From a virus: a DNA stretch of 39,628 nt. The notes under the pieces are model-generated. The model did not search any database. It was not told the origin of the DNA and saw only the letters and a program-made list of their open reading frames with translations. Positions 4,308 to 39,628 of this stretch are shown here, piece by piece; position 1 is the stretch's first letter; every line of letters begins with the position of its first letter. The position numbers were made by a program, and so were the translations under genes. The stretch is from IMG/VR virus record IMGVR_UViG_3300020213_000055, positions 1 through 39,628 of that record. The stretch is one strand, 5' to 3'.

Positions 4308-4315
4308 AAGTCCTC

Positions 4316-21369: not shown

Positions 21370-21909
21370 ATGAAAATTAAAGATCTAAATCCAAATCCAA
21401 GAAACCCTAGAAAAATAACAGAAGAAAAATTAATGTCACTAAAAGCCTCGCTTTTAAAATACGGCGACTTATCGGGCTTTGTATTTAACCGAACGACTAA
21501 AAGGCTAATCGGCGGCCATCAGCGATCTAAAGTATTGCCCGGAGATGCAGAAATAAAAATAGATAGGTCATTTAATATTACGCCCTGTAAAACGGTGGCA
21601 GAAGGTCACGTACTAATAGAAGGTGAAAGATTTAAATACCGCGAAGTTGAAGCTGATGAGCTATGGGAAACAGAAGCTCTTATTGCTGCAAATAAACACG
21701 GAGGAGAATGGGATAACCTAAGTAATTTTATAAAAAGTGTCCCAGAATTAAATTTAGAGTTAATAGGTTTCAATCTCCCGGAGATTGCGGCTTTGAATAT
21801 AACTATAGATCCTGATTTTATAGATGAACCAGCACCAAGATCTGATCCAAAAGAAAAAGACTCTCAACTAATAAAATGTCCAAACTGCGGAGTGCTAGTA
21901 AATGCCTAG
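21370..21909 (+). CDS. ParB/Srx-fold protein (phage ParB-like nuclease domain)
   Basis: This 179-aa protein begins with the ParB N-terminal-like domain: MKIKDLNPNPRNPRKITEEK, then the loop IGGHQRSKV (47-55), which corresponds to the nucleotide-binding GGHQR box. Residues 80-140 contain WETEALIAANKHGGEWD, found in phage ParB-like proteins often joined to methyltransferases. The C-terminus has one CPNC pair, half a zinc ribbon. It overlaps the first methyltransferase by 8 bp. Phage members of this family are usually annotated ParB-like nuclease or methylase partner and are not partition proteins. Confidence 0.82.
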   Translation: MKIKDLNPNPRNPRKITEEKLMSLKASLLKYGDLSGFVFNRTTKRLIGGHQRSKVLPGDAEIKIDRSFNITPCKTVAEGHVLIEGERFKYREVEADELWETEALIAANKHGGEWDNLSNFIKSVPELNLELIGFNLPEIAALNITIDPDFIDEPAPRSDPKEKDSQLIKCPNCGVLVNA

Positions 21910-22798
21910 TGTTAATTACGGCATTCCATACATGGGATCTAAAGGTTATGTAGCCCACAAAATATGCAGCATTTTTCCGAAGGCGGATAATTTCTACGAC
22001 CTATTCGGTGGTGGATTTTCAATCACTCACTTCATGCTTTTACATAGAGGAAATAACTACAAGCATTTTCATTTTAACGAGATCAAAGCTGGGAATATTG
22101 AATTAATAAAAGCCGCCATAGATGGTAAGTATAATTACAATGTTTTTAAGCCTTCGTTCATTACAAAAGAAGAGTTTTTAAGAGATAAAGATACCTGTCC
22201 GTACACGAGAATTATTTGGAGTTTTGGGAATAATCAGAAGGACTATTTATTCGGGAAAAATATAGAGTCTTATAAGGAGTCTATGCATAACGCTGTCGTT
22301 TTTAATATTTTTGACGACGTCTCTATACAAGCATTGGGAATACCTACTTTCCCAAAAAACTACTCAATAAAAGCAAGACGATTATTCATGAGACAAACCG
22401 TTGATAAAAAATCTGGCCGCGTGCTTCAGCTGATGCATTTGCAGCAACTTATTCAATTGGAGAGGTTGCAGCAATTGCAGAATTTGCAGAATTTGGAGCA
22501 GTTAAATTTTTCGGCTTTGAGTTACGAGAAAGTAAAAATAAAACCTAACTCGGTAATTTATTGTGATCCGCCCTACAGAGGTGCGACAGGATATTTAAAT
22601 GTTTTTGATCACGATAAGTTTTGGGAGTGGGTGATGGATCAAAAAGATCCTGTTTACGTTTCAGAATATATAGCGCCTAAAACTGCTCACGTAATTATGG
22701 CTATAAATAAAAAAGCGAATTTAGCGGCTACCGGACACACCGATAGTGTGGAAAAAATGTTTGCAAATGATGCGGGTAAAAAGGCGATGAATGGCTAA
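21902..22798 (+). CDS. Dam-like DNA adenine N6-methyltransferase, copy 1
   Basis: This 298-aa protein has class alpha (D12) motifs in order: motif X PYMGSK (9-14), motif I DLFGGG (33-38), motif IV DPPY (222-225). It should transfer methyl from SAM to adenine, probably for protection against restriction. Between I and IV, in the target recognition part (175-201), lies a Leu/Gln repeat tract (LQQLIQLERLQQLQNLQNLEQL, partly quoted). It is followed, with an 8-bp overlap, by a second copy. It shares with it long identical stretches on both sides of the variable part. Confidence 0.87.
   Translation: MPSVNYGIPYMGSKGYVAHKICSIFPKADNFYDLFGGGFSITHFMLLHRGNNYKHFHFNEIKAGNIELIKAAIDGKYNYNVFKPSFITKEEFLRDKDTCPYTRIIWSFGNNQKDYLFGKNIESYKESMHNAVVFNIFDDVSIQALGIPTFPKNYSIKARRLFMRQTVDKKSGRVLQLMHLQQLIQLERLQQLQNLQNLEQLNFSALSYEKVKIKPNSVIYCDPPYRGATGYLNVFDHDKFWEWVMDQKDPVYVSEYIAPKTAHVIMAINKKANLAATGHTDSVEKMFANDAGKKAMNG
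22464..22502 (+). repeat. Leu-Gln/Glu codon repeat in methyltransferase copy 1
   Basis: Units of the type TTGCAG / AATTTG repeat in frame, encoding L-x-x-L and L-Q-N steps at about residues 188-201. The tract is shorter than the matching one in copy 2 (23329-23412). Repeat units are multiples of 3 bp, so gain or loss keeps the frame. Confidence 0.8.
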
Positions 22799-23732
22799 TT
22801 ACGGCATTCCATACATGGGATCTAAAGGTTCCATAGCCCACGAAATATGCAGCATTTTCCCGAAGGCGGATAATTTCTATGATTTATTCGGTGGTGGATT
22901 TTCAATCACTCATTTCATGCTTTTACATAGAAGAAATAACTACAAGCATTTTCATTTTAACGAGCTACAATCTGGGAATATTGAGTTAATAAAAGCCGCA
23001 ATTGACGGTAAGTATAATTACAATGTTTTTAAGCCTAATTTTATTACGAGACAAGAGTTTTTCAGAGACAGGGATAATTGTGCATACACTAAACTTATTT
23101 GGAGTTTTGGGAATTGTCAGAGGACATATATCTTTGGGAAGCACATAGAATCCTATAAACATTCTCTGCATAACGCTGTCGTTTTTAATATTTTTGACGA
23201 AGTATCTATACAAGCATTAGGAATATCTACTTTCCCAAAAAACTCCTCAATAAAAGCGAGACGATTCTTCATGAGACAAGCCGTTAGGAAAAAAGTAGGG
23301 GAGGTACGGCAATTGGAGGGCTTGCAGAGCTTGCAGCAATTAGAGAGGTTGCAGAGGTTGCAGAATTTGGAGAATTTGGAGAATTTGGAGAATTTGCAGA
23401 ATTTGGAGCAGTTAAATTTTTCGGCTTTGAGTTACGAGAAAGTAAAAATAAAACCTAACTCGGTAATTTATTGTGATCCGCCATATAAAGGAACTGCTAA
23501 GTACCTCAGTGATTTTGATCACGATAAGTTTTGGGAGTGGGTGATGGATCAAAAAGATCCTGTTTTTGTTTCAGAATATGCAGCGCCTAAAACTGCACAC
23601 GTAATTATAGCTATCAATAAACAAGCAAGGTTAGCGGGTACCGGACCCACCGATAGCGTAGAAAAAATGTTTGCAAATGATGCGGGTAAAAAGGCGATTT
23701 TAAGCCCCTCCACAATCAATTCAAAGGGCTAA
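22791..23732 (+). CDS. Dam-like DNA adenine N6-methyltransferase, copy 2
   Basis: This 313-aa protein duplicates the previous gene. Motif X PYMGSK (7-12), motif I DLFGGG (31-36), motif IV DPPY (229-232) are all intact. The Leu/Gln/Glu repeat (174-207) is longer than in copy 1 and includes three LEN triplets in a row. Much of the rest is identical or conservatively changed, including the DNA from about 23398 to 23482. Different recognition regions may give a second specificity. The C-terminus differs from copy 1 in its last dozen residues. Confidence 0.87.
   Translation: MANYGIPYMGSKGSIAHEICSIFPKADNFYDLFGGGFSITHFMLLHRRNNYKHFHFNELQSGNIELIKAAIDGKYNYNVFKPNFITRQEFFRDRDNCAYTKLIWSFGNCQRTYIFGKHIESYKHSLHNAVVFNIFDEVSIQALGISTFPKNSSIKARRFFMRQAVRKKVGEVRQLEGLQSLQQLERLQRLQNLENLENLENLQNLEQLNFSALSYEKVKIKPNSVIYCDPPYKGTAKYLSDFDHDKFWEWVMDQKDPVFVSEYAAPKTAHVIIAINKQARLAGTGPTDSVEKMFANDAGKKAILSPSTINSKG
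23329..23412 (+). repeat. Expanded Leu-Glu/Gln-Asn codon repeat in methyltransferase copy 2
   Basis: The tract contains the 9-base unit TTGGAGAAT three times in a row (about 23369-23395), flanked by TTGCAGAAT and TTGGAGCAG. It encodes LENLENLENLQNLEQL. The perfect short units are typical of slippage-prone DNA, and changes of 9 bp keep the reading frame. Confidence 0.85.
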
Positions 23733-24322: not shown

Positions 24323-24572
24323 TCAACCTTGACTCTCGGGGTCAATTCAAACTAATGCTTCGCGCTGAATACCACGCGTCAACCTTGACTCTCGGGGTCA
24401 ATTCAAACTAATGCTTCGCGCTGAATACCACGCGTCAACCTTGACTCTCGGGGTCAATTCAAACTAATGCTTCGCGCTGAATACCACGCGTCAACCTTGA
24501 CTCTCGGGGTCAATTCAAACTAATGCTTCGCGCTGAATACCACGCGTCAACCTTGACTCTCGGGGTCAATTC
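24323..24572. repeat. 56-bp iteron array (4.5 copies)
   Basis: Four identical 56-bp units start at 24323, 24379, 24435 and 24491; a 26-base partial fifth starts at 24547. Each carries the inverted repeat TTGAC-N7-GTCAA (first at 24329-24345) and a second, wider pair ATTCA/TGAAT. There are no spacers, so this is not a CRISPR array. The arrangement, next to a small DNA-binding protein and an A+T-rich tract, is that of plasmid or phage replication iterons or a centromere-like site. Confidence 0.9.
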
Positions 24573-27691: not shown

Positions 27692-27955
27692 TCAATCGCT
27701 TTCGCTCCTGCTCCAACTCCAAATCCCGCTCCAACTCCAACTTAAGTTACGGCTACCGCTCCGACTCCATCCGCCGCTGCCGCTACCGCTACCGCTCAAG
27801 CCCCCTCTCCAGCTCCAACTTCCGCCCCAACTCCTGCCACCGCTACGGCACCCGCTATTGATCCACAACCCGCGCCTGCTCCAACTCCAAATCCCGCCCC
27901 TGTTTCCGCTTTTGATTCGGCACCAACTAGGTTTTCGATTTTGTGTTATTTGCAT
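27692..27955 (-). CDS. Gly/Ser/Trp/Arg-repeat protein, cassette 1, module 3
   Basis: This 87-aa ORF opens MQITQNRKPSW and continues as low-complexity dipeptides (GS, WS, RS). It ends SWSRSESD, much like module 3 of the second cassette. The ATG overlaps the stop of module 2 (ATGCAAATAA). Codon units are mostly six bases, such as GGGAGC and TGGAGC. The opposite strand reads as Ala/Pro/Thr repeats; the start codons, overlaps and direction of neighbours favour the minus strand. No known family. Confidence 0.6.
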   Translation of the reverse strand: MQITQNRKPSWCRIKSGNRGGIWSWSRRGLWINSGCRSGGRSWGGSWSWRGGLSGSGSGSGGWSRSGSRNLSWSWSGIWSWSRSESD

Positions 27956-28119
27956 TTGCTCACGCTACCGATCCCGCTCCTACTCCAAATCCAACTCCCG
28001 CCACCGCTACAGCTCCAACTCCAAATCCCGCTACTGCTCCCGCTCCCGCTCCCGCTACTGCTCACGCTCCCGCTCCAACTCCTTCTCCACTTCGGTTTTC
28101 GATATTGTGTTATTTGCAT
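27946..28119 (-). CDS. Gly/Ser/Trp/Arg-repeat protein, cassette 1, module 2
   Basis: This 57-aa ORF begins MQITQYRKPKWRRSWSGSVS and ends GIGSVSKCK. It is almost the same as module 2 of cassette 2 (29761-29940), with about 90 bp of nearly identical DNA. Its ATG overlaps the stop of module 1 and its stop overlaps the ATG of module 3, both through ATGCAAATAA. It has no Shine-Dalgarno of its own and probably depends on re-initiation. Confidence 0.6.
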   Translation of the reverse strand: MQITQYRKPKWRRSWSGSVSSSGSGSGSSSGIWSWSCSGGGSWIWSRSGIGSVSKCK

Positions 28120-28337
28120 TTGCTTACGCTACCGCTCCAACTACTGCTCCCGCACCCGCTCCCGCTCCAACTCAAACTCCAATCTAAGCTATCGCCCAAA
28201 CCCCAACTCACGCTTAAGCTAGCCCCCCAGATACAGCCCCCGCTTCGGCTACCGCTCCTGATTCGGCTCCCGCTCCCGCTACCGCTCACGCTTCGGCGCC
28301 CGCTCCATTTCGGTTTTCGATATTGAATTATTTGCAC
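28110..28337 (-). CDS. Gly/Ser/Trp/Arg-repeat protein, cassette 1, module 1
   Basis: This 75-aa ORF starts at a GTG within the last codons of the upstream gene (28328-28585) and begins MQIIQYRKPKWSGRRSVSGS. It ends SGSVSKCK. The middle is less regular (SGGCIWGASLSVSWGLGDSLD). It is the first member of a chain of three overlapping ORFs. Confidence 0.55.
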   Translation of the reverse strand: MQIIQYRKPKWSGRRSVSGSGSGSRIRSGSRSGGCIWGASLSVSWGLGDSLDWSLSWSGSGCGSSSWSGSVSKCK

Positions 28338-28585
28338 CCGAAACTCTCAATCGCCGAAAGTCTCACATACCAAAATTTGCAATTTAATTTCTGCTCATCT
28401 TTATATGATTTCAGAGTCCATTCGCCGGTCTCATAAACAATCGCTGGATCTTCAAGTTTTACACACGTTTTATCGACGCCTATTAATTTTCCTGTATAAA
28501 AATAATTAGCGCACATCAGCGTCACCTGTTGTCCTAATAAACTTGTTAGACCTTGTTTTTCTTCACTCGTTACTATCATTTGCAT
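28328..28585 (-). CDS. Small conserved phage protein
   Basis: This 85-aa protein contains LLGQQVTLMCANYFYTGKLIG, VKLEDPAIVYETGEW and VRLSAIESFGCK. It looks like a small beta-barrel and matches a group of short phage proteins with the pattern 'V.l.ca.Y.YtG.L.gv...cv.L.dp.iVYetG' that have no assigned function. It has a good ribosome binding site (AAGGAAAAAAACAA). The first repeat module starts inside its last codons. Confidence 0.75.
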   Translation of the reverse strand: MQMIVTSEEKQGLTSLLGQQVTLMCANYFYTGKLIGVDKTCVKLEDPAIVYETGEWTLKSYKDEQKLNCKFWYVRLSAIESFGCK

Positions 28586-28623
28586 TTGTTTTTTTCCTTT
28601 TCGTTATTTAAATCGATATCTTT

Positions 28624-28857
28624 TTATTTCCTGTGCTTATACGCAAGTGACAAAAGTTTATGAATCTCGCTGGCGCACGCACATGCCGCGTGAACAGTTT
28701 TAGGATTAATATTATCCTTCACTACACTTTTGCTTAATTCGAATAAGTGCTCTGCCAAGTTTATCGAGATAGGTGTTAGCGTCTTTCTCTCCTTTTCTAA
28801 CAAGGGAGAGTTCTCGTTTAAGTCCATGGAGCGGGTTTTTTCTGACACTTGATTCAT
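28624..28857 (-). CDS. Small hypothetical protein
   Basis: This 77-aa protein contains LTPISINLAEHLFELSKSVV and TVHAACACASEIHKLLSLAY, a helical pattern with 'naacncaseI.kll.l' seen in other small phage proteins of unknown function. It starts after GAGGAAATGTT. Its first 146 bases overlap the end of the basic ORF at 28712-29197 in another frame. Confidence 0.68.
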   Translation of the reverse strand: MNQVSEKTRSMDLNENSPLLEKERKTLTPISINLAEHLFELSKSVVKDNINPKTVHAACACASEIHKLLSLAYKHRK

Positions 28858-29197
28858 AACATTTCCTCAATTTCTTGATTCTGTTTTTCTTATACCAGCG
28901 TCTATGCAAACCATTCAGGGAAGCCCGTTTCATTATAGCCTCCCACTTCAATGGGTTTTTGGAGCGCCACGCGTTCACTCTCATAGTTTGATATTTGGGG
29001 TCTACCTCTTTTTTCCTGAGTGCCCATTCTCTCCACTGTCGCCTCCTCGATTCCCTGTACGCCGGGTTCTCTTGTCTCTGCGCCGCCGCGTATTTTCTCT
29101 TGTATATTCTTTTGTATTTTTTTGAGCCTTTGGCTAATCCGAGACTCGCTAACTCCGAAGCAATCGCCAACCTCTTTGTTTTTGAAACCCCATACAT
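28712..29197 (-). CDS. Basic protein overlapping the sigma-like gene
   Basis: The ORF is 161 aa. From about residue 27 it reads KKYKRIYKRKYAAAQRQENP and AYRESRRRQWREWALRKKEVDP, typical of basic phage proteins with repeated 'Y....R....W...N' units. It overlaps the sigma-like gene by 296 bp in the +1 frame. A run of seven A (T7 at 29117-29123 on the plus strand) at the point where the two frames both read well suggests a fusion by frameshift or slippage, or else a one-base assembly error. The true start is unknown. Confidence 0.5.
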   Translation of the reverse strand: MYGVSKTKRLAIASELASLGLAKGSKKYKRIYKRKYAAAQRQENPAYRESRRRQWREWALRKKEVDPKYQTMRVNAWRSKNPLKWEAIMKRASLNGLHRRWYKKNRIKKLRKCYESSVRKNPLHGLKRELSLVRKGEKDANTYLDKLGRALIRIKQKCSEG

Positions 29198-29549
29198 ATA
29201 TTAAAAAGAAAATTACTCTTTCTTCTCCCTGTAAGACTTCAACAGCTCGTTTAAAATCATACCCATTGATTCTAGCCTCCTCGCTTGATCCCGTAGAAGA
29301 AAGTTGTATTTCTTCCTCGTATTCGTCGTCCAATCGATTGAGCAATGGATCACGGCAGACGCCTCCAACAGTTCGTCCATAAATACCTCGAATAGCCTCG
29401 ATAACTCTTTGCCTTGCGGTTTGTTTCCAGTGTGGGTTTTTGAGGCCTCCCAAATAAGCCTCCTGAGCGATATCTTCACAGTCTCTCTGAAATCCAAGCC
29501 CTCTAGCAATGCTTCGATATCGGCGCAGCAATTTTTCATGATCTTGCAT
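28902..29549 (-). CDS. Sigma-70-like RNA polymerase sigma factor
   Basis: This 215-aa ORF has a region 2-like segment (LGFQRDCEDIAQEAYLGGL, about 18-36), then QTARQRVIEAIRGIYGRT, shared by phage sigma-like proteins, and a region 4 helix-turn-helix (EERVIFFLIYVWGFKNKEVGDCFGVSESRISQ in pieces, 108-140). After residue 150 it no longer looks like a sigma factor. It may redirect host polymerase to late phage promoters. Ribosome binding site is poor: AAGG directly touches the ATG. Confidence 0.75.
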   Translation of the reverse strand: MQDHEKLLRRYRSIARGLGFQRDCEDIAQEAYLGGLKNPHWKQTARQRVIEAIRGIYGRTVGGVCRDPLLNRLDDEYEEEIQLSSTGSSEEARINGYDFKRAVEVLQGEERVIFFLIYVWGFKNKEVGDCFGVSESRISQRLKKIQKNIQEKIRGGAETREPGVQGIEEATVERMGTQEKRGRPQISNYESERVALQKPIEVGGYNETGFPEWFA

Positions 29550-29569
29550 CCTTTTTGTTATTTAAAATT

Positions 29570-29770
29570 TCATTCGCTCCCGCTCCGACTCCAACTTCGC
29601 ATTCCGCCACCGCTCCAACTCACGCTCCAACTTCTTCTTCCGCTCCCGCTCCAGCTACTGCTCCCGCTCCGACTCCAACTCCAACTCCAACTCCCGCTCG
29701 TGCTCCAACTCCAACTCCCGCTCCTGCTCTTCCTACCGGCCTGCGGTTTTCGATTTTGTGTTATTTGCAT
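29570..29770 (-). CDS. Gly/Ser/Trp/Arg-repeat protein, cassette 2, module 3
   Basis: This 66-aa ORF begins MQITQNRKPQAGRKSRSGSW and ends SWSRSGSE. It parallels module 3 of cassette 1: same N-terminus (MQITQNRKP), same type of ending without SKCK. Its ATG overlaps the stop of module 2 through ATGCAAATAA. The sigma-like gene follows 20 bp later. Confidence 0.6.
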   Translation of the reverse strand: MQITQNRKPQAGRKSRSGSWSWSTSGSWSWSWSRSGSSSWSGSGRRSWSVSWSGGGMRSWSRSGSE

Positions 29771-29940
29771 TTGCTCACGCTACCGATCCCGCTCCTACTC
29801 CAAATCCAACTCCCGCCACCGCTACCGCTCCAACTCCAAATCCCGCTACTGCTCACGCTCCCGCTCCCGCTCCCGCTCACGCTCACGCTCCCGCTCCAAC
29901 TCCTTCTCCACTTCGGTTTTCGATATTGTGTTATTTGCAT
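29761..29940 (-). CDS. Gly/Ser/Trp/Arg-repeat protein, cassette 2, module 2
   Basis: This 59-aa ORF begins MQITQYRKPKWRRSWSGSVS and ends GIGSVSKCK, differing from cassette 1 module 2 only by a few substitutions and two extra residues. It is linked to both neighbours by ATGCAAATAA overlaps. A longer reading from a TTG at 29955 is possible but less likely. Confidence 0.6.
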   Translation of the reverse strand: MQITQYRKPKWRRSWSGSVSVSGSGSGSVSSSGIWSWSGSGGGSWIWSRSGIGSVSKCK

Positions 29941-30068
29941 TTGCTCCTGCTCCAACTCCTGCCACCGCTACCGCTCCAACTCCCGCTCACGCTACGGCTC
30001 CCGCTCCCGCTCACGCTACGGCTCCCGCTCCTGTTCCACTTCGGTTTTCGATTTTGTGTTATTTTCAT
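29931..30068 (-). CDS. Gly/Ser/Trp/Arg-repeat protein, cassette 2, module 1
   Basis: This 45-aa ORF begins MKITQNRKPKWNRSGSRSVS and ends SWSRSKCK. Its ATG overlaps the stop of the exonuclease gene as ATGA (30065-30068), so it is coupled to that gene. It is too short for most gene finders but continues the chain pattern exactly. Confidence 0.58.
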   Translation of the reverse strand: MKITQNRKPKWNRSGSRSVSGSGSRSVSGSWSGSGGRSWSRSKCK

Positions 30069-30946
30069 TTTGGATTTGTGACCTTCCAAAACTTTGTACT
30101 CGGCTTTCTGTATTGTTCTAAATCTAACCCACTCAGTACTTCTATTTTAGAATAATCAACATTCCCAATTCTGCTCTCGTGAGTAATTTTAATTCCAGCG
30201 CACAACAATCTAACGTAACCGCTTTTTCTGGCGTGCTCTAATAAGGTTTCCTTAAGGTGATCCCTCTCAATTTCCATCGCCTCTATTTGTTTGCACAATC
30301 TTTTATAGGCGGAGGATTCGAGAGACAAGCCTGTCAACGGCACAAAATCTTTATCGGATAGTTTAGGCGGCACCCGTTTTAAAACATTCTCATTCCAGAA
30401 AATATTCTCCAAATTAAAAAGATTTATTTGATATTCTGGATCGGGCATTACCTTGATGTGCGCGAGTTTTTTAGGATCTAAAATTTTATCGTGTCTGCCA
30501 TCGTACGGATACGAAAGGTAATGACACACAACCGCATTGGTAGCCATCAAACAGTGTTGTAACTGCGCTACATATTTATCAGGAACAAAACCCATTTTTG
30601 TACCCTCCCAATCTGCCTTGCCTGAAAATTTAATCTCAATGATTTCGGTTTTACACTCCGAATAACCGTCTAAAGATGCTCCTAGCCATGGGAAATCCTC
30701 TCTGACTACCATAGCGGGTTGATATGATTTGCCCGTTAGCATCTCGAATAGCGCACGGATTCTAGGTTCTAAGTCTATACCGACTTGCATAGCGTAATTT
30801 GTTTCGCTGATTGTAGGCTCTGCTAAAATTTTTTCCTCGTATAGTTGTAATATAGTTTTATACGGGCTGTTACCCATTATTATAGGAGCTTCCGAACCGC
30901 CGATCCTATTGTGCCGTTTTTTTAAAAATTCTAAATTATCTGACAT
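30065..30946 (-). CDS. YqaJ-type recombination exonuclease
   Basis: This 293-aa protein has the lambda-exonuclease-like YqaJ features: NRIGGSEAPIIMGNSPYKT (13-31), LEPRIRALFE, then WLGASLDGYSE (D93) and EIIEIKFSG (E104, K106), the PD-(D/E)xK active site. It would resect DNA ends for annealing with the Sak4-like ATPase and SSB encoded at 31230-32640. The start at 30946 has GAGGTGGGG upstream; a reading to 31000 lacks it. It is the first gene of the minus-strand early operon. Confidence 0.87.
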   Translation of the reverse strand: MSDNLEFLKKRHNRIGGSEAPIIMGNSPYKTILQLYEEKILAEPTISETNYAMQVGIDLEPRIRALFEMLTGKSYQPAMVVREDFPWLGASLDGYSECKTEIIEIKFSGKADWEGTKMGFVPDKYVAQLQHCLMATNAVVCHYLSYPYDGRHDKILDPKKLAHIKVMPDPEYQINLFNLENIFWNENVLKRVPPKLSDKDFVPLTGLSLESSAYKRLCKQIEAMEIERDHLKETLLEHARKSGYVRLLCAGIKITHESRIGNVDYSKIEVLSGLDLEQYRKPSTKFWKVTNPK

Positions 30947-31059: not shown

Positions 31060-31233
31060 ATGCTTAAAAAGTGGATGAAACAACCCGGAAACACTGCCGT
31101 TAAAATGGCTATGGAATTGGAATACACATCGTCCACTACTATTAATAAATGGATAGAGAGAAATTGCATCCCGGCCCATCAGAGAACCAGGGTTTTAGAG
31201 CTGATCACAAGAAAAGGAGCATCACAAAAATGA
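31060..31233 (+). CDS. Cro/CI-like helix-turn-helix repressor
   Basis: This 57-aa protein reads MLKKWMKQPGNTAVKMAMEL then STTINKWIERNCIPAHQRTRV, the pattern of a small Cro-type helix-turn-helix (turn near MELEYTSSTTINKW). The start at 31060 is preceded by GGAAGA; a start at 31045 would add five residues. It sits in the divergent control region and overlaps the Sak4-like gene as ATGA. It may regulate both early operons. No CI-like partner was found. Confidence 0.75.
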   Translation: MLKKWMKQPGNTAVKMAMELEYTSSTTINKWIERNCIPAHQRTRVLELITRKGASQK

Positions 31234-32150
31234 GTGTATTATTACGTCTGGTTTCTAATGGAAGAATAAAAAAACCGTTTTTTATTACGTTATACGGGCC
31301 TCCGGGGGTTGGAAAAAGCTCATTTGCTGCGGGGGCCCCAAAAACTATTTTTTGCGGACCTGAGGAAGGCACCTTTAACATGGATGTTTCTAGGTTTCCG
31401 CGCTCTAAAAATTTTGATGAAATAATGAATTGTATTTCTGAATTAAGAAATGAAAAACATGATTTTCAAACTTTAGCTTTGGACACATTAGATGCTATCG
31501 AGCCGCTTATTTGGGACACGGTTTGCGGTTTGGATGGATCTGAAACGATTGATGAGGCACAGGGCTCTTATGGAAAAGGGTATGTGATGGCTAATAAATA
31601 TTGGGCGCGCATGATAGAGGCATTGCACGACTTAAGAGATTATAGCGGTATGAATATTATCGCGCTCGCGCATTCCCAAGTGAAATCATTTAATGATCCA
31701 TCATTATTACAACCCTATGACAGGTATCAATTAAAATTGAATGAAAAGGCGTCTGCATTGTGGAGAGAGACTTGTGATCTTATGGGATTTGCCGACTTTC
31801 AAACTTTTTTAAAAGAAGGCGACACGGAAAAGAAGAACCGAGCACTTGGCGAGGGAAAACGTATTTTGTATACCGAGCGACGCCCTGCATTTGACGCTAA
31901 AAATAGATTGGGATTGCCTTCTGAAATCCCGTTATCGTTTCAGGCATTTGAACAAGCCGTTTTGGTTTCGACGCCATTATATAAAGATCCGCTAGCGTTA
32001 AAGTCTAAAATCCTAAAACTAAAAGAAATTTTAACCGATGAGAAAATCAAAAAAGCGGTTAGAGAATCTCTCGATAAAGCGGGCGATGAAACAGAAAAAC
32101 TAATTCCAATTCTAAACAGACTCGAAGAAATAACAAAAGGAGCAACATAA
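31230..32150 (+). CDS. Sak4-like recombination ATPase
   Basis: This 306-aa protein is a RecA-like ATPase with Walker A GPPGVGKSS (23-31) and a Walker B-like LALDTLDAI (82-90), followed by MANKYWARMIEALHDLRDYSG and IIALAHSQVKSF, typical of the Sak4/AAA_24 phage annealing proteins. It would work with the SSB-like protein directly downstream and with the YqaJ exonuclease. AAAGGAG precedes the start, which overlaps the repressor stop. A longer reading from 31149 is out of context. Confidence 0.85.
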   Translation: MSVLLRLVSNGRIKKPFFITLYGPPGVGKSSFAAGAPKTIFCGPEEGTFNMDVSRFPRSKNFDEIMNCISELRNEKHDFQTLALDTLDAIEPLIWDTVCGLDGSETIDEAQGSYGKGYVMANKYWARMIEALHDLRDYSGMNIIALAHSQVKSFNDPSLLQPYDRYQLKLNEKASALWRETCDLMGFADFQTFLKEGDTEKKNRALGEGKRILYTERRPAFDAKNRLGLPSEIPLSFQAFEQAVLVSTPLYKDPLALKSKILKLKEILTDEKIKKAVRESLDKAGDETEKLIPILNRLEEITKGAT

Positions 32151-32151
32151 C

Positions 32152-32640
32152 ATGTCGTATAAAGAAATTACTCAAGGTGAAAAATTAGCATTACCAGTTG
32201 GCGCTAGATTCATTGAATCTAAAGCAGGCACAATGGGTATGGAGGTAGCATTTGAGTTTGAAGAGATTGCTACCGGCGCTCGCGAGCGCCTTAACTGGGT
32301 TGGATGGCTATCTGAAAAAGCGATTGAAAATACAATGGCAACATTGGTTGATGTCCTTGGTTTCACGGGCGATGATTCGGTAGATCAGAATGGACATCTC
32401 GCCAACCCTAACGCAATCAACATGCTTACTCAGGTAAGGATTACAGTAGAACTCGAAGCTTACGCAGGTAAAACCTATCCTAAAATAAAATGGATTAACC
32501 GTGTAGGCGGCAGTTCATTTGCAGAATGTAAACCACAAACTATTAAGTCTAAGTTAGGAGAGGCAAATTTTGCTGCGCACTATTTGGCTCAGAAGCAAAA
32601 AAGTGGTATTACGTTGGAAAAAGTTGAACTACCATTTTAA
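32152..32640 (+). CDS. Single-stranded DNA-binding protein-like
   Basis: This 162-aa protein has an OB-fold-like beta pattern (GARFIESKAGTMGMEVAFEFEE, in pieces; RITVELEAYAGKTYPKIKWINRVGG) and a flexible acidic end (LEKVELPF). Such proteins of the DUF669/SSB type regularly follow Sak4-like genes. It starts 1 bp after the upstream stop, so it is coupled. The exact Pfam family is uncertain. Confidence 0.75.
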   Translation: MSYKEITQGEKLALPVGARFIESKAGTMGMEVAFEFEEIATGARERLNWVGWLSEKAIENTMATLVDVLGFTGDDSVDQNGHLANPNAINMLTQVRITVELEAYAGKTYPKIKWINRVGGSSFAECKPQTIKSKLGEANFAAHYLAQKQKSGITLEKVELPF

Positions 32641-32652
32641 AAAAAGGAAAAT

Positions 32653-32907
32653 ATGAAATACTTAATTATGTTTTTAATAGGTGCGGTTTTACATGGTGCC
32701 GAAATTCCTAGACAAGAGACCGTAAAAATTAGTAAGCAGACTCAAATTGTTAGTTATGATCCTAAAACAGATAAATTAAATTTAATTAGCCCTTGGTCTT
32801 GGGAGGATGCATCTTACGCAATTTTGGAACTGGTTAAACAATGCGAATCTCGGGTTGCATCTATGAATAAAACAGCTCCTGAAATTAAGAGAGAATTAAA
32901 AAAATGA
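32653..32907 (+). CDS. Small exported protein upstream of the papain-like protease
   Basis: This 84-aa protein has a signal peptide (MKYLIMFLIGAVLHGAE) and a short charged mature part ending in a helix with ILELVKQCESRVASM. AAAAGGAAAAT precedes it. Its stop overlaps the protease start as ATGA. It could be a partner, chaperone or inhibitor of the protease; only the position suggests this. The first eight residues match the secreted protein at 4005-4307. Confidence 0.68.
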   Translation: MKYLIMFLIGAVLHGAEIPRQETVKISKQTQIVSYDPKTDKLNLISPWSWEDASYAILELVKQCESRVASMNKTAPEIKRELKK

Positions 32908-33944
32908 AATACTTTTTATTATTAATATTATCCGTTCCATTGTTTGCGGCGCAGGAACCAATGCGGTTTGACACGGTACCTGATGTCCCGTCGTCTGAGT
33001 TCACATTTGAAACCGCTCCAATGCGTGGCGAGCCATACTCTTTAGGGCTTGTAAAAAAAGAAAGCGTCAGAGGTTTTATATCCGTTTCCCCCAGTAAAGA
33101 ATTTTTAGGTAAGGAATTGGTGATACCAAATAAATTTTCTTTAAGTCAATTCGCTGAACTGGCACCTGTAAAAAACCAAGGGAATTGCGGATCATGTGTT
33201 TCATTTGCCGTGTCCGCTGCGGTAGAAGATCAATACCGCATATTAGGAAAAATTCTACCCACCCTTTCCAATCAATATCAAATGTCATGCGGAAAAAGGG
33301 AATGGATTTGCAACGGGTCTTTTTTTGAAAAAACAGCCAGCGACTATACTTTGTTAAACGGAAATATTACGCAAGATAAATACCCGTACACGGCTAGCAA
33401 TTCCTCATGCAAAGGCAAAGTATCGGATACTATCGCGCAAATTAAAAACCCACGTGTGATCGACAACTCGCCTAAGTCAATTATCACGGCTCTTCTTACA
33501 TACCATGCGGTACCCGTTACCGTAGGAGCTGATAATTATTTTTTAAGCTATAAAGGCGGAATTTATAACGCATGCACCAATGCCGGAACAAATCATCAAG
33601 TCGAATTAGTTGGGTATGATTTAGAAGGCGCTCAATTTGATGCAAACGGAAAACTTCCGGCAGGTAAGGGAACGTGGCTAATTAAAAATTCGTGGGGCAC
33701 AAGATACGGTGAGGCAGGTTATATCACTATGAAAATGACCTCATCATCGGGAAGGCTTTGTAATAATATTGCTGAAGAGGCAGGGGTTTTTGACGTTGAT
33801 TTACCGACTCCTACACCGACTCATACACCGACTCCTACGCCCGCTCCGCCGACTCCAAGTAATTTAGATTGGAAATGGCTAGGCATCGGATTCGCTATAT
33901 TATTAAGTATTGCAGGATCTCTTTTTGCAATATTTAAAAAATAA
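32904..33944 (+). CDS. Secreted, membrane-anchored papain-like cysteine protease
   Basis: This 346-aa protein has a signal peptide (1-16), a pro-like region, and a C1A peptidase domain: oxyanion Gln92 and catalytic Cys98 in NQGNCGSCVSF, His231 in NHQVELVGYD, Asn262 in WLIKNSWGTRYGEAGY. A Pro/Thr linker (301-318) and a single membrane helix (about 323-343) with a short basic end follow. All catalytic residues are present. A papain-family enzyme with export signal and anchor is very unusual in a phage; it may act in the periplasm on host or rival-phage proteins. Confidence 0.85.
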   Translation: MKYFLLLILSVPLFAAQEPMRFDTVPDVPSSEFTFETAPMRGEPYSLGLVKKESVRGFISVSPSKEFLGKELVIPNKFSLSQFAELAPVKNQGNCGSCVSFAVSAAVEDQYRILGKILPTLSNQYQMSCGKREWICNGSFFEKTASDYTLLNGNITQDKYPYTASNSSCKGKVSDTIAQIKNPRVIDNSPKSIITALLTYHAVPVTVGADNYFLSYKGGIYNACTNAGTNHQVELVGYDLEGAQFDANGKLPAGKGTWLIKNSWGTRYGEAGYITMKMTSSSGRLCNNIAEEAGVFDVDLPTPTPTHTPTPTPAPPTPSNLDWKWLGIGFAILLSIAGSLFAIFKK

Positions 33945-33952
33945 TCTATCTG

Positions 33953-35166
33953 TGTGTTGGCTTTATATTTGGGCCAGCACACTCTCTCTTTTAAAAAAAA
34001 TTAAGCCTCATTGGATAATACTATTTACAGTAGTTTTGTTACCTCTAATCGTTCGGGTTGAACAAGTTGCAGCTCCATTAGATTTAAATGTATGGCCAGT
34101 ACAAAACGAATTATTTACCTATTGGAAATGCGCACTTCTTTTTACGGTCTCACCAACACTATTTTTTTTTAGTTTTAAAAAAGTAATATTAGCTCCGTAT
34201 GTCTACATTTTTTTTATTTGCATTTCTGGAATATTAACTAGGCATACAGAAATTGTATGGTATGGGCTCTATAACTACAGAGAAGGAATGCTTACTTTAA
34301 TTTGTTATATGGCCCTATTCATATCATCGGCGCATTTAATAAATACCGATGAAAAAAGGAAACAACTAGTCTATGCAGTAGCCCTATCTTTTTTACTTGT
34401 CGGTTTAGTCGCTATTTTACAGTTTTTAAAAATAGACGTGTTTAATTTGCGTGGAATAAACCGAATCATTAGAAACGGATACGAAGGCCAATTAAAAACC
34501 TCTCTAACGCCATCTTTTTCAACGCTAATGAATTCAAATCACTTAGGGTTATATTGCGCAATGATTTTTCCGTTCGTCGCTATTGAGTTTAAAAAATGGT
34601 TTATTCCTTTTATATTATTCGTGTCTATGACCTGTTACTCAAGGGGGGCATGGGCTAGTATTTTAATAACTGCATGCTTGGTATTTTACTATTTGTATAA
34701 TGAAATAGATTCAAAGCATCTTATTATTTTATCGTTTTGTGTTTACGCTATTGCTCCAAAGATTAGCAAAGTAAATTTTGATTTTAATAATAATGATAGG
34801 TTTTATTTTTGGGAAAATACCATTCCGCTACTAAGTGTTTTTGGTAATGGCCCGCAAACTTTAATTTATACTTTCCCGAATTGGAATTCATCTAAAAAAG
34901 CTGATAATGGAATAAATAAGGATGTGATGATAGACAGACCGCATAATATTTTCTTGCAAGTGTGGCACGATACAGGTTTTTTTTCATTGTTATGTTTTTT
35001 ATTTTTCCCTATTTATTTTTTACTGAAACAAAAAAAAGATAGGTACTCTATTGCAGTTTCATTTTCAGTTATCGGGTATTTAATAGCCGCATGTTTTACC
35101 GATAGTACTGTTTGCGTGGCCCCGCTGTATTGGATAATACTAGGTAGCGGATACGCGAAACTATGA
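33953..35166 (+). CDS. O-antigen ligase/polymerase-like membrane protein
   Basis: This is a polytopic membrane protein of about 404 aa with about ten helices. It has the conserved features of the Wzy/WaaL family: NSNHLGLYCAMIFPF, SRGAWASILITA (periplasmic-side Arg) and DRPHNIFLQVWHDTGFF with the characteristic His-Asn and a following acidic residue. Such enzymes join or polymerise O-antigen. The start is uncertain: a GTG at 33953 follows the protease stop; a TTG at 33910 would overlap the protease gene. It could change the host surface after infection or in a carrier state. Confidence 0.78.
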
Positions 35167-36590
35167 GTGAGAGAGAGTATCAAACTAAAAGTATTGAACT
35201 AGTTAGAAACGAATTCTTATCTGGTAAAAAGAAAGTCCTGTTGTGGCTTGCTACCGGATCGGGAAAAACGCATGTATTCTGCAAGATGATCAAAGATACT
35301 GCAGCGAAGGGTAAATATTGCATTATAGTTGTGCGCGGCAGGAAATTAGTCGACCAGGCTTCGCAAAGACTTACGAGAGAAAATGTAGATCATGGTGTAC
35401 TCATGAATAATCACTGGAACTATAGACCGTCACTACCAGTGCAGGTAATTAGCATTGATACGGCCATTTCAAGAAGGCTAAGGCCAAAGGCCGATTTAAT
35501 AATAGTCGACGAATGCCATCTTTCGAATAGTAAGCGATACATCGAATTTTTAAAACAGTACGATTGTCACCTAGTTTCGGTTACCGCCTCCCCATACGTT
35601 GACGGCGGGTTGCGGCACGTCGCAGAATCCATAGTTCATCCAATAAGTATGTTGCAGTTAATAGAACAAAATTACTTATGCAATTTTAGATATTTCGCCC
35701 CCTCTCAACCGGATTTAACAGGAGTTCAGGTATCTAGTTCGACTAAGGACTACGTGAATGATCAACTTGAAACCGCAATGGTAAAAGGATCTTTGACAGG
35801 AAAAGTAATTGATAATTGGATAAAAATTGCTAAAGATAGGCCAACACTTTTATTCGCAGTGAATATTCATCACAGTAAAATACTTATACAAAAATTTATA
35901 GATGCGGGAATAAGTGCTGAGCATATAGATGCGAATTCAACCGATAGAGAAAGAGAAAATGTTATTAACCGATTACAGATCGGCGAAACAAAAATTGTGT
36001 CTAATGTCGGAATATTTTGTACTGGCATTGATATTCCTTGTGTTAGCGCGGTTATCATGGCAAGACCGACAAAAAGCAGAAATTTATTTATTCAACAGGC
36101 AGGAAGAGGCACGAGGATATATGAAGGAAAATCAAACTGTATTTTACTTGACCACTCAGGAAACTTACAGAGACACGGATACCCCACCGATGAACCAGAA
36201 GTAGACTTAGATGGTAAGATAAAAACTGAATCCACTAAAAGAGAATCTAAAACCTGCAAAGAATGTTTTTGTGTTTATATCGGGGATAAATGCCCGGAGT
36301 GTGGCCACAAGGTTACTAAAACAGAGGCTAAAGTATTAACAGAAACTGATGAAAATTTAGTGGAAGTAATACCAAATTATGATCCAGTTAAAAATTATAT
36401 GCACCTGTTAAACATTGAAAAGAAACGAACTAATAAAAAGCAAGCATGGGTTTATCACAAACTAGTAGACAGATTCGGTTTAGACGTATGCAAAAATCTT
36501 TTACCCGATTGGTTTAAAAATAAGTATGGGAAAGATTCGCTGTTTCGTAATTCCCCTTACGAGCAATTTAAAAAAAATGTGATAGAATAA
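35163..36590 (+). CDS. Superfamily 2 helicase with C-terminal zinc ribbon
   Basis: This 475-aa protein has helicase motifs I ATGSGKT (30-36), II DECH (116-119), III VTASPY (140-145) and VI QQAGRGTR (311-318), and a four-Cys zinc ribbon (C365, C368, C377, C380). The C-terminal 80 residues are basic. The set resembles phage DEAD/DEAH helicases of the SSL2/UvsW type, which work in recombination or origin unwinding. The start overlaps the upstream gene's stop as ATGA. Confidence 0.88.
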   Translation: MSEREYQTKSIELVRNEFLSGKKKVLLWLATGSGKTHVFCKMIKDTAAKGKYCIIVVRGRKLVDQASQRLTRENVDHGVLMNNHWNYRPSLPVQVISIDTAISRRLRPKADLIIVDECHLSNSKRYIEFLKQYDCHLVSVTASPYVDGGLRHVAESIVHPISMLQLIEQNYLCNFRYFAPSQPDLTGVQVSSSTKDYVNDQLETAMVKGSLTGKVIDNWIKIAKDRPTLLFAVNIHHSKILIQKFIDAGISAEHIDANSTDRERENVINRLQIGETKIVSNVGIFCTGIDIPCVSAVIMARPTKSRNLFIQQAGRGTRIYEGKSNCILLDHSGNLQRHGYPTDEPEVDLDGKIKTESTKRESKTCKECFCVYIGDKCPECGHKVTKTEAKVLTETDENLVEVIPNYDPVKNYMHLLNIEKKRTNKKQAWVYHKLVDRFGLDVCKNLLPDWFKNKYGKDSLFRNSPYEQFKKNVIE

Positions 36591-36597
36591 TTCTACT

Positions 36598-36804
36598 ATG
36601 ACAGGCGAATGGCACGAATGGTCAAATCACGTTTTGGCCGACCTAAAAAGGTTAGAGCAATCTAGCAATCAAATTAGCATTCAATTGCAAAAAATAGAAA
36701 TAGAGATAGCCACACTTAAAGTAAAGTCGGGGATATTTGGAGCTGTGGGCGCGTCAATTCCTGTAGTTGCTATGATTTTATACGACATGATAATTAAAAA
36801 ATAA
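36598..36804 (+). CDS. Small coiled-coil/membrane protein, lysis-associated
   Basis: This 68-aa protein has a helical amphipathic N-terminus (LADLKRLEQSSNQISIQLQK), then a single C-terminal membrane helix (GIFGAVGASIPVVAMILYDMI) and a Lys-Lys end. The build resembles XhlA-type haemolysin proteins that help holin-endolysin release. It is two genes upstream of the M15 peptidase. Confidence 0.65.
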   Translation: MTGEWHEWSNHVLADLKRLEQSSNQISIQLQKIEIEIATLKVKSGIFGAVGASIPVVAMILYDMIIKK

Positions 36805-36813
36805 GAGGTATAT

Positions 36814-37017
36814 ATGCTAGACACATTACTACTTGCCCTGCCCTATGGAATAGGTCCGTGGGCCTATTTGGTAGTGCAGCTCGCTAAGTTGCTGCCGGCG
36901 GTAATCACTGCTATTAAATCAGATCCAAACCCTAATAATAAATCAGCTCCAATTGTAGTTGATAAAATTAAAAAGATCATAACCGTAGGGGAACCAACGG
37001 AATTGAAAAATATATGA
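36814..37017 (+). CDS. Putative holin-like small membrane protein
   Basis: This 67-aa protein has one hydrophobic segment (LLLALPYGIGPWAYLVVQLAKLLPAVITAI, quoted in parts, about 4-33) and a short polar tail. AGAGG lies upstream. Its position between the XhlA-like protein and the endolysin makes holin likely. No characteristic motif. Confidence 0.55.
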   Translation: MLDTLLLALPYGIGPWAYLVVQLAKLLPAVITAIKSDPNPNNKSAPIVVDKIKKIITVGEPTELKNI

Positions 37018-37376
37018 TAGTAAAAGATTTAAACCCAAAACTTAGAATACTTACAAAAGAACAAACCGAAAACTTATCTGAGTTATTCCGTAGAATAACT
37101 TTACTTGAAGAATTAATTGAAATGGAATTTACCGTTATTTCCGGTTTTAGAACTCCGATGGATCAATTAAGAACTAATCCTAAGAATCCAAAGAGCGCCC
37201 ATTGCGAAGGAATGGCAGTTGACCTCAAAGATAAAGAAGGGGTTATCTATGATTTTCTCATAAACAACCCCGATATGGTAATTAAGCTTGATTTTTATAT
37301 TGAGCAAAAAACCTACACTCCGGGTTGGATACATTTACAAACAAGAGCAACCCACAATCGGTTTTTTAAGCCTTAA
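37014..37376 (+). CDS. M15-family peptidoglycan endopeptidase (endolysin)
   Basis: This 120-aa protein has SGFRTPMDQ (43-51), SAHCEGMAVDL (61-71, zinc ligands His63 and Asp70) and GWIHLQT (104-110, zinc ligand His107), the active-site set of M15 DD-carboxypeptidase/L-Ala-D-Glu endopeptidases. It would break the cell wall at lysis. There is no signal peptide, so it needs the holin. It overlaps the putative holin gene by 4 bp and ends 6 bp from a converging gene. Confidence 0.88.
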   Translation: MIVKDLNPKLRILTKEQTENLSELFRRITLLEELIEMEFTVISGFRTPMDQLRTNPKNPKSAHCEGMAVDLKDKEGVIYDFLINNPDMVIKLDFYIEQKTYTPGWIHLQTRATHNRFFKP

Positions 37377-37935: not shown

Positions 37936-39345
37936 TTACCAAAATGGAATGTAACGATCAGTTCCGTTGATTGTAATTTTAACGTAACCAACGGCATTTC
38001 CGGCGGTTCCAGTTGGACCATTTGCAAGAGTCAAAGCGTCCGCGCCCGTTGTGCCCGTGTCGGTATTTAAAATATGCTTTGGGTTTTCTGATGTCGCGCC
38101 TAAAGTAATAATCCCACCGTCAGCAATTTTCATTACTACCGTTGAATCATCTGCAAATCTTGCGATGTCTTGGGCTTGGGCATTGTTTGTAACATAGAGC
38201 GCAGAAATAATTCCACTAGGCGGGAATACAGTATAATTATTGCTTGGCGCTAATTCAAAAAATCCGCCAATAGCCGTTGATGGTGTTCCGCCCGTTCCCG
38301 CCGATCCTTGAGTTCCTATTAGTCGTGGATTGCTACCAACCCCCTCACTAGCAATGCCTACCGCTCCGTAAACATAATTTGCCTTCGAGCCAAGAAATGC
38401 CCCTCCTCCGTGCGTGGCACCCGCCGCTGTACTGTTTTCTGCAGAATACCCGCTAGATCTGACGCCCCAATTTCCTCCGCTGCCATCGGCATACCCTACT
38501 TGGGTATTCCCGCCCGTATTATTTAGAATAGTCATTCCCACCACATCGGTAGTTATGGTTCCGCTTAGGGTGCTTGAGTACGATCCGGCATCGGATAATG
38601 TAACGCTAGAATTTTGTAACGTAGATCCTCCGGTGCCATCAGCGCGAAGTAGTGCGTTATCAGTTGCCCCGGTAGATCCGCTAATGCTACCGCCCGAAAC
38701 AAAAGTAAGATTGCCTACGCCGTCTGTAGACAGAAACTGTCCATTAGTTCCATCGGTTAACGGATAAATAATGCCCGATACAGTTATTCCAGCAAAACTA
38801 GGACTATCGGGAATATTCAAATTCTGATTGAATGGATTGGGAGGATCAACAAAAGTAAGATTATTAGCCCCGTCTGTAGATAGAACTTGTCCATTAGTTC
38901 CATCGGCTACCGGATAAATAAGGCCCGCTACAGTTATTCCAGCAAAACTAGGACTATCGGTAGTACTTAAATTCTGATCGAACGGATTGGGAGGATCAAC
39001 AAAAGTAAGATTATTAGCCCCGTCTGTAGATAGAACTTGCCAAGCAGTTCCATCGGCTACCGGATAAATAAGGCCCGCTACAGTTATTCCAGCAAAACTA
39101 GGAGTATCGGTAGTATTCAAATCCTGATTGAATGGATTTCCACCGCCATTTTCCCAAGAATTACCGTCCCACCCGTAAACTAACCCACTATCTTGAGCTA
39201 CGCGAGCATCCCCCACGCTATTTCCAGAAGAAGGTAACGCGGCAATGTTAGCTACGGAAGGCTTCCATGTAGGAGCACCGCCCATCAGAGAAACATTTCC
39301 TAATGCGCACGCAGTAAAAAATAATAGTATAAAAAATGATTTCAT
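37936..39345 (-). CDS. Fibre-like protein with signal peptide and 50-aa repeats
   Basis: This 469-aa protein has an N-terminal signal peptide-like stretch (MKSFFILLFFTACALG), then three 50-aa repeats (DTPSFAGITVAGLIYPVADG, GQVLSTDGANNLTFVDPPNP), then Ser/Thr/Gly-rich beta sequence and a C-terminus with NGPTGTAGNAVGYVKITING. The repeat motif 'VLSTDGANNLTFV' is common in fibre shafts. The start at 39345 has GGAG 6 bases upstream. A signal peptide on a fibre is unexpected and its cleavage would put it outside the cytoplasm; alternatively it is an attached adhesin. Confidence 0.72.
   Translation of the reverse strand: MKSFFILLFFTACALGNVSLMGGAPTWKPSVANIAALPSSGNSVGDARVAQDSGLVYGWDGNSWENGGGNPFNQDLNTTDTPSFAGITVAGLIYPVADGTAWQVLSTDGANNLTFVDPPNPFDQNLSTTDSPSFAGITVAGLIYPVADGTNGQVLSTDGANNLTFVDPPNPFNQNLNIPDSPSFAGITVSGIIYPLTDGTNGQFLSTDGVGNLTFVSGGSISGSTGATDNALLRADGTGGSTLQNSSVTLSDAGSYSSTLSGTITTDVVGMTILNNTGGNTQVGYADGSGGNWGVRSSGYSAENSTAAGATHGGGAFLGSKANYVYGAVGIASEGVGSNPRLIGTQGSAGTGGTPSTAIGGFFELAPSNNYTVFPPSGIISALYVTNNAQAQDIARFADDSTVVMKIADGGIITLGATSENPKHILNTDTGTTGADALTLANGPTGTAGNAVGYVKITINGTDRYIPFW
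38687..39136 (-). repeat. Three 150-bp tandem repeats in the fibre gene
   Basis: Units of exactly 150 bp (50 codons), with the word GGATT[GT] recurring at 38835, 38985 and 39135. The inner two are nearly identical; the C-terminal one has diverged (SGIIYPLTDG). In-frame copy number changes would change shaft length. Confidence 0.8.
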
Positions 39346-39362
39346 TTTAAACTCCATAATTT

Positions 39363-39482
39363 TTATAAACAAGAAATACGCAATAGCAATCTGCGAATTC
39401 TAACTATTCTAAAAATAACAAATCTCTTTGATGCAATTTTTTTAAGCCTATCCTGTAACTCTTCTTTTGATATAATTTTCAT
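39363..39482 (-). CDS. 39-aa micro-ORF, copy 3 of the tandem array
   Basis: Identical in protein to the copy at 39508-39627 and differing from 85-204 by one residue (Ile for Met). It ends 18 bp before the fibre start at 39345. The protein begins MKIISKEELQDRLKKIASKR; its C-terminal third is basic and hydrophobic. It may be a decayed or very small gene multiplied by tandem duplication. Confidence 0.4.
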   Translation of the reverse strand: MKIISKEELQDRLKKIASKRFVIFRIVRIRRLLLRISCL

Positions 39483-39507
39483 AGTTTTATTTACCCCATC
39501 CTAATTT

Positions 39508-39627
39508 TTATAAACAAGAAATACGCAATAGCAATCTGCGAATTCTAACTATTCTAAAAATAACAAATCTCTTTGATGCAATTTTTTTAAGCCTATCCTG
39601 TAACTCTTCTTTTGATATAATTTTCAT
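39508..39627 (-). CDS. 39-aa micro-ORF, copy 2 of the tandem array
   Basis: Its start region lies in the 60-base overlap, so it is also seen, truncated, at 1-59. It is the middle copy in the circle. See the copies at 85-204 and 39363-39482; all three keep an intact frame, start and stop. Confidence 0.4.
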   Translation of the reverse strand: MKIISKEELQDRLKKIASKRFVIFRIVRIRRLLLRISCL

Positions 39628-39628
39628 A

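What the first reader, a model, noticed from the sequence alone, without database searches (positions are those of the whole stretch)
32653..33944. Phage-encoded exported papain-family protease with small exported partner
A full Gln-Cys-His-Asn active site, signal peptide, Pro/Thr linker and C-terminal membrane anchor are all present. C1A proteases are rare in phages and not part of any known virion or lysis scheme. The coupled 84-aa exported protein could be its inhibitor or propeptide in trans. Possible roles: superinfection exclusion, degrading envelope receptors, aid in lysis, or defence against predators of the host.
Basis: partly seen in the sequence, partly recalled or inferred. Interest (0 to 1): 0.75.

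Follow-up and report, generated by a model that had tools for sequence, protein, structure and literature searches.

The report
Phage-carried exported papain-type protease
A phage, probably one that infects predatory Bdellovibrio-like bacteria, carries a gene for a secreted, membrane-anchored papain-type protease that belongs to a group found only in phages in our sampling; it probably cuts proteins of the cell envelope during infection, but its actual task is not shown.

Summary
Window 32904-33944 (+) encodes a 346-aa C1A (papain) protease with signal peptide, full Q92-C98-H231-N262 active site, Pro/Thr linker and C-terminal membrane helix. Upstream, translationally coupled, lies an 84-aa exported ORF without detectable relatives.

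New results: (1) The contig is an IMG/VR phage collinear with lytic Bdellovibrio phage phi1422 (portal 54% identical, next phage 25%), so a Bdellovibrio-like host is likely but not shown. (2) The protease is absent from phi1422 and sits in a variable slot of the recombination operon, closed by a strong terminator-like hairpin. (3) With 17 other IMG/VR phage proteases it forms a strongly supported all-viral clade (100/99). All look exported, all keep the active site, and a third disulphide is gained or lost as a pair. (4) In these phages the gene behaves like a mobile cargo ("moron") unit, often beside an amidase, an exported trypsin, a thioredoxin or a putative metalloprotease.

Best reading: an envelope-attacking cargo protease, most likely aiding host dismantling and release (about 0.4); superinfection exclusion and prey digestion remain open. 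The "inhibitor/propeptide partner" idea is not supported. New variant of a known kind.

The parts
32904..33944 (+). C1A (papain-family) protease, 346 aa, exported and membrane-anchored
   Evidence: Pfam Peptidase_C1 141 bits; PDB matches; AF2 fold; 17 viral relatives
32904..32951 (+). putative Sec signal peptide of the protease (residues 1-16)
   Evidence: sequence reading; 17 of 17 viral relatives have a signal-like or lipobox N-terminus
33195..33197 (+). catalytic Cys98 codon; Gln92 at 33177-33179, His231 at 33594-33596, Asn262 at 33687-33689
   Evidence: alignment A4, invariant in 18 sequences
33801..33860 (+). Pro/Thr-rich linker (12-bp tandem repeat in the DNA)
33876..33941 (+). C-terminal transmembrane helix plus KK (residues 325-346)
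   Evidence: AF2 helix 325-345; hydrophobicity read from sequence
32653..32907 (+). 84-aa small exported ORF (P0001), overlaps the protease start by 4 bases; no relatives found
   Evidence: low-confidence AF2 (pLDDT 59)
33952..33992 (+). intrinsic-terminator-like hairpin (12 pairs) with T-rich tail, 7 bp after the protease stop
   Evidence: not matched by any of 300 random windows
31149..32150 (+). Sak4-like recombinase (AAA_24) at the head of the operon; true start may be downstream of this ORF start
   Evidence: 34% to phi1422 gp10
32152..32640 (+). 162-aa gene of the recombination module, homologue of phi1422 gp09 (39%): left border of the variable slot
33910..35166 (+). Wzy_C (O-antigen ligase/polymerase-like) membrane protein in the same variable slot; true start uncertain, the ORF overlaps the hairpin
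   Evidence: only in this phage among 31 records
35163..36590 (+). helicase, homologue of phi1422 gp02 (51%): right border of the variable slot
36598..37376 (+). probable lysis genes: two small ORFs with a hydrophobic segment (36598-36804, 36814-37017) and an endolysin-like ORF (37014-37376)
   Evidence: (phrog_894 endolysin); small ORFs have no family match

Best explanation
A Sec-exported C1A endopeptidase carried as a mobile cargo (moron-type) gene by phages, here by a phi1422-like myovirus that probably infects a Bdellovibrio-like bacterium. It is made in the infected cell with the recombination operon, exported, folded with disulphides outside the cytoplasm, and held by its C-terminal helix to the inner membrane (relatives use a lipid anchor or none). 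There it cuts envelope or periplasmic proteins. Most likely net effect: weakening the protein part of the host (or bdelloplast) envelope so that endolysin-driven lysis and phage release go further, much as viral cathepsin works with chitinase in baculoviruses. Shown: C1A family and fold, complete active site, conserved export signals, cargo-type placement, viral clade. Inferred: proteolytic activity, time of expression, substrate, the lysis role.
For: Export and oxidative folding are conserved: all 18 have signal-like N-termini, five cysteines are invariant, and the pair C224/C286 is present together in 12 and absent together in 6 with no half case. Active site kept in all 18. Links to lysis: Amidase_2 endolysin directly upstream in L173/L177/L178/L180, tail-lysozyme/endolysin-like gene adjacent in L175, GH108 endolysin near the more distant L199, exported trypsin between DUF5675 and a small membrane ORF in G065, a portal relative of the window, and a C1 domain fused to glycoside hydrolase-like and peptidoglycan-binding domains in an annotated Alicyclobacillus phage endolysin. 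In the window, probable lysis genes follow on the same strand. Cargo placement: slot content differs from phi1422; own terminator-like hairpin in the window, L173, L178, L179, L180; lone opposite-strand gene in L181, L182, L190.
Against: In the window a terminator-like hairpin separates the protease from the lysis genes, and it is grouped with recombination genes, which are usually early or middle. Most clade members (e.g. L179, L181, L182, L190, L196) are not next to a recognised endolysin; the four Amidase_2 cases are one sub-lineage, i.e. one event. No activity or expression data.
Confidence: 0.4

Rival explanations
1. Surface remodelling or superinfection exclusion: the anchored protease cuts an envelope receptor or incoming phage proteins, and the neighbouring Wzy_C protein changes the O-chain, together closing the cell to other phages.
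For: Wzy_C gene in the same variable slot; grouped with early/middle-type recombination genes, own terminator-like hairpin; cargo position in related phages. Phage-borne Wzy that converts O-antigen is known (PMC4815439, listed).
Against: Wzy_C is present only in this phage, not in the other carriers of the protease, so the two are not a conserved pair; a terminator-like hairpin lies between them; no tyrosine integrase in the window or in all but one carrier, which weakens lysogenic conversion but not exclusion in a lytic cycle.
Confidence: 0.25
2. Prey-digestion gene: the host is a predator; the phage supplies an extra exported hydrolase that speeds digestion of the prey and so feeds phage production or helps progeny leave the prey ghost.
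For: Collinearity with Bdellovibrio phage phi1422; carriers of this protease also carry an exported trypsin, thioredoxin-like protein, nuclease and putative HExxH metalloprotease, a set like the predator's own secretome (trypsin-like and other secreted proteases, PMC7174725).
Against: The host of the window and of the other carriers is not shown; the membrane anchor here argues against a freely secreted digestive enzyme; Bdellovibrionota genomes could not be addressed with the tools.
Confidence: 0.2
3. One reading: the 84-aa exported ORF is the protease's inhibitor or trans propeptide.
For: Translational coupling (ATGA overlap) and a signal-like N-terminus.
Against: No relatives beside the other 17 proteases or anywhere in 44 records; no inhibitor family match; the protease has its own conserved leader; AF2 of the ORF is low-confidence.
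Confidence: 0.08

Closest known systems
Family C1A cysteine proteases (papain, cathepsin L, bromelain; Pfam PF00112)
   Same: Fold, Gln-Cys-His-Asn site, NSWG motif, papain-type cysteines
   Different: No Inhibitor_I29 prodomain found; short leader with a TGL-type motif; Val after the catalytic Cys; C-terminal Pro/Thr linker and membrane helix; phage-borne
Bacterial secreted C1A proteases (e.g. L002 Firmicutes UBA3943, L003 Acidobacteria)
   Same: Secreted, 31-37% identical in the aligned domain
   Different: Mostly longer multidomain proteins of about 400-1700 aa; outside the viral clade
Baculovirus viral cathepsin V-CATH with chitinase ChiA
   Same: Works-like comparison: virus-encoded papain-family enzyme that aids host break-up together with a polymer hydrolase (abstract of PMC9965964)
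   Different: Eukaryotic virus, different export route and target; not close in sequence; analogy only
Alicyclobacillus phage MMB025 endolysin XXN61434 (C1 domain plus glycoside hydrolase-like and peptidoglycan-binding domains)
   Same: C1-family domain in a phage lysis protein
   Different: Fused, weak C1 match (28 bits), Alicyclobacillus (Gram-positive) host, integrase nearby
Bdellovibrio phage phi1422 (phiPLPE group dwarf myovirus)
   Same: Collinear virion and recombination genes
   Different: Different terminase; slot between gp09 and gp02 holds exonuclease and pyrophosphatase instead of protease and Wzy_C

Membership tests
Peptidase family C1A | Significant match to the PF00112 domain over its length | tested here: met
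   141 bits against cut-off 20.7, profile positions 2-208 of 220
Peptidase family C1A | Ordered Gln, Cys, His, Asn active site | tested here: met
   Q92, C98, H231, N262
Peptidase family C1A | Papain fold | tested here: met
   AF2 domain pLDDT mostly 76-94, Foldseek E to 3e-18 against C1A structures
Peptidase family C1A | Proteolytic activity | not testable with these tools
   needs enzyme assay
Cathepsin-L-like with I29 propeptide | N-terminal Inhibitor_I29 prodomain | tested here: not met
   only Peptidase_C1 found at E 0.001; residues 15-68 of low confidence in the model
Moron (autonomous phage cargo gene) | Present in one phage, absent at the same place in a relative | tested here: met
   slot differs from phi1422; no C1A in phi1422
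Moron (autonomous phage cargo gene) | Own terminator | tested here: met
   terminator-like hairpin at 33952-33982; consensus match, not an experiment
Moron (autonomous phage cargo gene) | Own promoter | tested here: inconclusive
   promoter-like sites no more frequent than in shuffles; gene is coupled to the upstream ORF
Two-component spanin | Small coiled-coil inner-membrane protein with overlapping lipoprotein gene | tested here: not met
   P0002 is a catalytic C1A; P0001 lacks a lipobox cysteine

The most novel reading that the evidence does not exclude
Phages of predatory bacteria carry interchangeable exported proteases (papain, trypsin and metalloprotease types) that attack envelope proteins: a protein-degrading arm of phage release comparable to viral cathepsin, possibly needed to break out through the predator and its prey ghost.
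Probability: 0.2. Interest if true: 0.8.

Novelty: new variant of a known kind. Interest (0 to 1): 0.55.

Why it matters
Phage lysis in Gram-negative hosts is described in terms of holins, peptidoglycan hydrolases and spanins. A recurrent group of exported phage proteases would add an envelope-protein-degrading step, or a new exclusion or predation aid. It gives a testable entry into the biology of phages of predatory bacteria, of which very few are known, and a protease family with little precedent in isolated phages.

Tried and rejected
Single-protein pattern searches of viral contigs with P0002 and with Sak4 found nothing; an alignment was needed. Terminase relatives proved poor guides: the terminase is not shared with phi1422, and only 1 of 49 relatives had a C1 domain, a different 247-aa protein without a signal peptide. 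A conserved P0001-protease or Wzy-protease pair was rejected. Lysogenic conversion as main role was weakened: a tyrosine integrase in only 1 of the 17 protease-clade records searched, some of them fragments. P0001 structure was uninformative. Plasmids: one Deinococcus hit only. Paper searches found no description of exported phage C1A proteases, but the library is open-access only. Searches were input errors.

Full report
Observation. Two + strand ORFs are present as described: 32653-32907 (84 aa, P0001) and 32904-33944 (346 aa, P0002), sharing an ATGA stop/start. P0002 matches Pfam Peptidase_C1 with 141 bits, many C1A structures by sequence and by fold. The active-site residues are Q92, C98, H231 and N262. 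A signal-like N-terminus, a Pro/Thr linker and a C-terminal helix ending in KK are read from the sequence and the model.

What the contig is. The window is an IMG/VR virus record, 39,628 bases, linear. Of 42 window ORFs tested, 29 match Bdellovibrio phage phi1422 at 33-55% identity, in the same order across head, tail and baseplate, and in the recombination module. Portal and helicase have phi1422 as by far their best isolated relative (54% against 25%; 51% against 36%). phi1422 is a lytic dwarf myovirus of the phiPLPE group (PMC3391216). A Bdellovibrio-like host is therefore likely, but this is an inference from relatedness; the terminase has other affinities.

Where the gene sits. In phi1422 the block between the 162-aa homologue (gp09) and the helicase (gp02) holds small genes, an exonuclease and a pyrophosphatase. 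In the window the same block holds P0001, the protease and a Wzy_C protein. phi1422 and 30 portal-relative records have no C1A (many of these records are fragments). A terminator-like hairpin of 12 pairs starts 7 bp after the protease stop; none of 300 random windows of the contig scored as high. Codon usage of the protease equals that of the phage genes. This is the picture of a settled cargo gene in a variable slot, not of a recent host capture.

The family. An alignment with cellular C1A proteins brought up 34 IMG/VR loci. A maximum-likelihood tree puts the window protein and 17 of these in one all-viral clade, support 100/99, against 23 cellular proteins and again after adding the 12 best matches from 297 genomes of the phylum around G109. 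The window protein has a long branch, and Bdellovibrionota genomes could not be searched by name, so 'phage-only' is provisional. The contigs are phages: terminase large subunits lie in six of them. In alignment A4 the catalytic residues and five cysteines are invariant, a TGL-type motif lies in the leader, and every N-terminus is signal-like, many with a lipobox. Cysteines 224 and 286 are both present in 12 and both absent in 6 sequences, as expected of a disulphide kept or lost as a unit in an exported protein (the sequences are related, so the p-value of 5e-5 is only a guide).

Neighbours. The gene is a lone opposite-strand gene in L181, L182 and L190, and has its own terminator-like hairpin in L173, L178, L179, L180 and the window. 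Neighbours are repeatedly exported hydrolases or helpers: Amidase_2 upstream and an exported HExxH protein (no Pfam match) downstream in L173/L177/L178/L180, with a thermonuclease gene in three; exported trypsin directly upstream in L179; exported thioredoxin-like protein in L176; a tail-lysozyme-like gene in L175. L191/G092 shares the window's YqaJ, Sak4, 162-aa gene and helicase and carries its protease on the other side of YqaJ: within this module type the protease was gained or moved more than once. G065, a portal relative, has an exported trypsin instead, between DUF5675 and a small membrane ORF, in what looks like a lysis cassette. The annotated endolysin of Alicyclobacillus phage MMB025 contains a C1 domain.

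Mechanism. Shown: family, fold, active-site conservation, conserved export features, cargo placement. Inferred from these: an active envelope-side endopeptidase. For the task, the links to endolysins and lysis cassettes favour help in dismantling the host at release (about 0.4). The position of the window gene with recombination genes, before a terminator-like hairpin and beside Wzy_C, leaves superinfection exclusion or surface change (about 0.25). The likely predator host and the wider hydrolase cargo leave prey digestion (about 0.2).

The 84-aa ORF. It is coupled to the protease but has no relatives in 44 records, which include all other carriers except redundant copies, no family match and no confident model. 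A role as inhibitor or propeptide is not excluded for this one phage but is not supported. Wzy_C is equally private to this phage.

Novelty. C1A proteases are well known, and single phage C1 domains are in databases (BFVD hits; phrog_16701). The exported, cargo-type phage clade and its link to a phi1422-like lineage were not found in the open literature searched. I call it a new variant of a known kind.

Noticed in passing
window 4005-4319, 209-631, 37936-39372 (-); also G061, G062, G077 (loci L217-L221, L227, L228): Several tail/fibre-region proteins of this phage and its portal relatives begin with Sec-type signal peptides (e.g. MKYILLILLASTCLAADVKIGDLP in G061, homologue of window 4005-4319). 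Exported tail-region proteins are unusual and unexplained.
   Followed up: partly
L208 (G065 about 31.4-32.8 kb): Exported trypsin-like protease encoded between DUF5675 and a 140-aa membrane ORF, behind a small membrane ORF, apparently in a lysis cassette of a phi1422-like phage.
   Followed up: partly
L173, L177, L178, L180: Conserved run amidase - C1A lipoprotein - exported HExxH protein without Pfam match, with a thermonuclease gene behind it in three.
   Followed up: partly
L176 8125-8808, L179 8766-9581, L184, L190, L195 6861-7556: An uncharacterised exported protein of about 230-270 aa recurs in five phages that carry the C1A protease; no Pfam or PHROG match for the L176 copy.
   Followed up: partly
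window 24323-24572: Perfect tandem repeat, 56 bp x 4.5 copies, in an intergenic stretch; possible origin or regulatory array.
   Followed up: no
window 27700-30100: Long low-complexity C-rich stretch (GC skew to -0.4) of GCTCCC/GCTCCA hexamer-based repeats between YqaJ and the primase.
   Followed up: no
window 21902-23732; L025 1-963: Two tandem, similar proteins (probably DNA adenine methyltransferases by motif) with an LQ-rich repeat; L025 is 99% identical elsewhere but 87% here, so this spot looks hypervariable.
   Followed up: no
window 39357-39628: Contig ends in a 145-bp, 1.9-copy perfect repeat, perhaps an assembly effect at the end.
   Followed up: no
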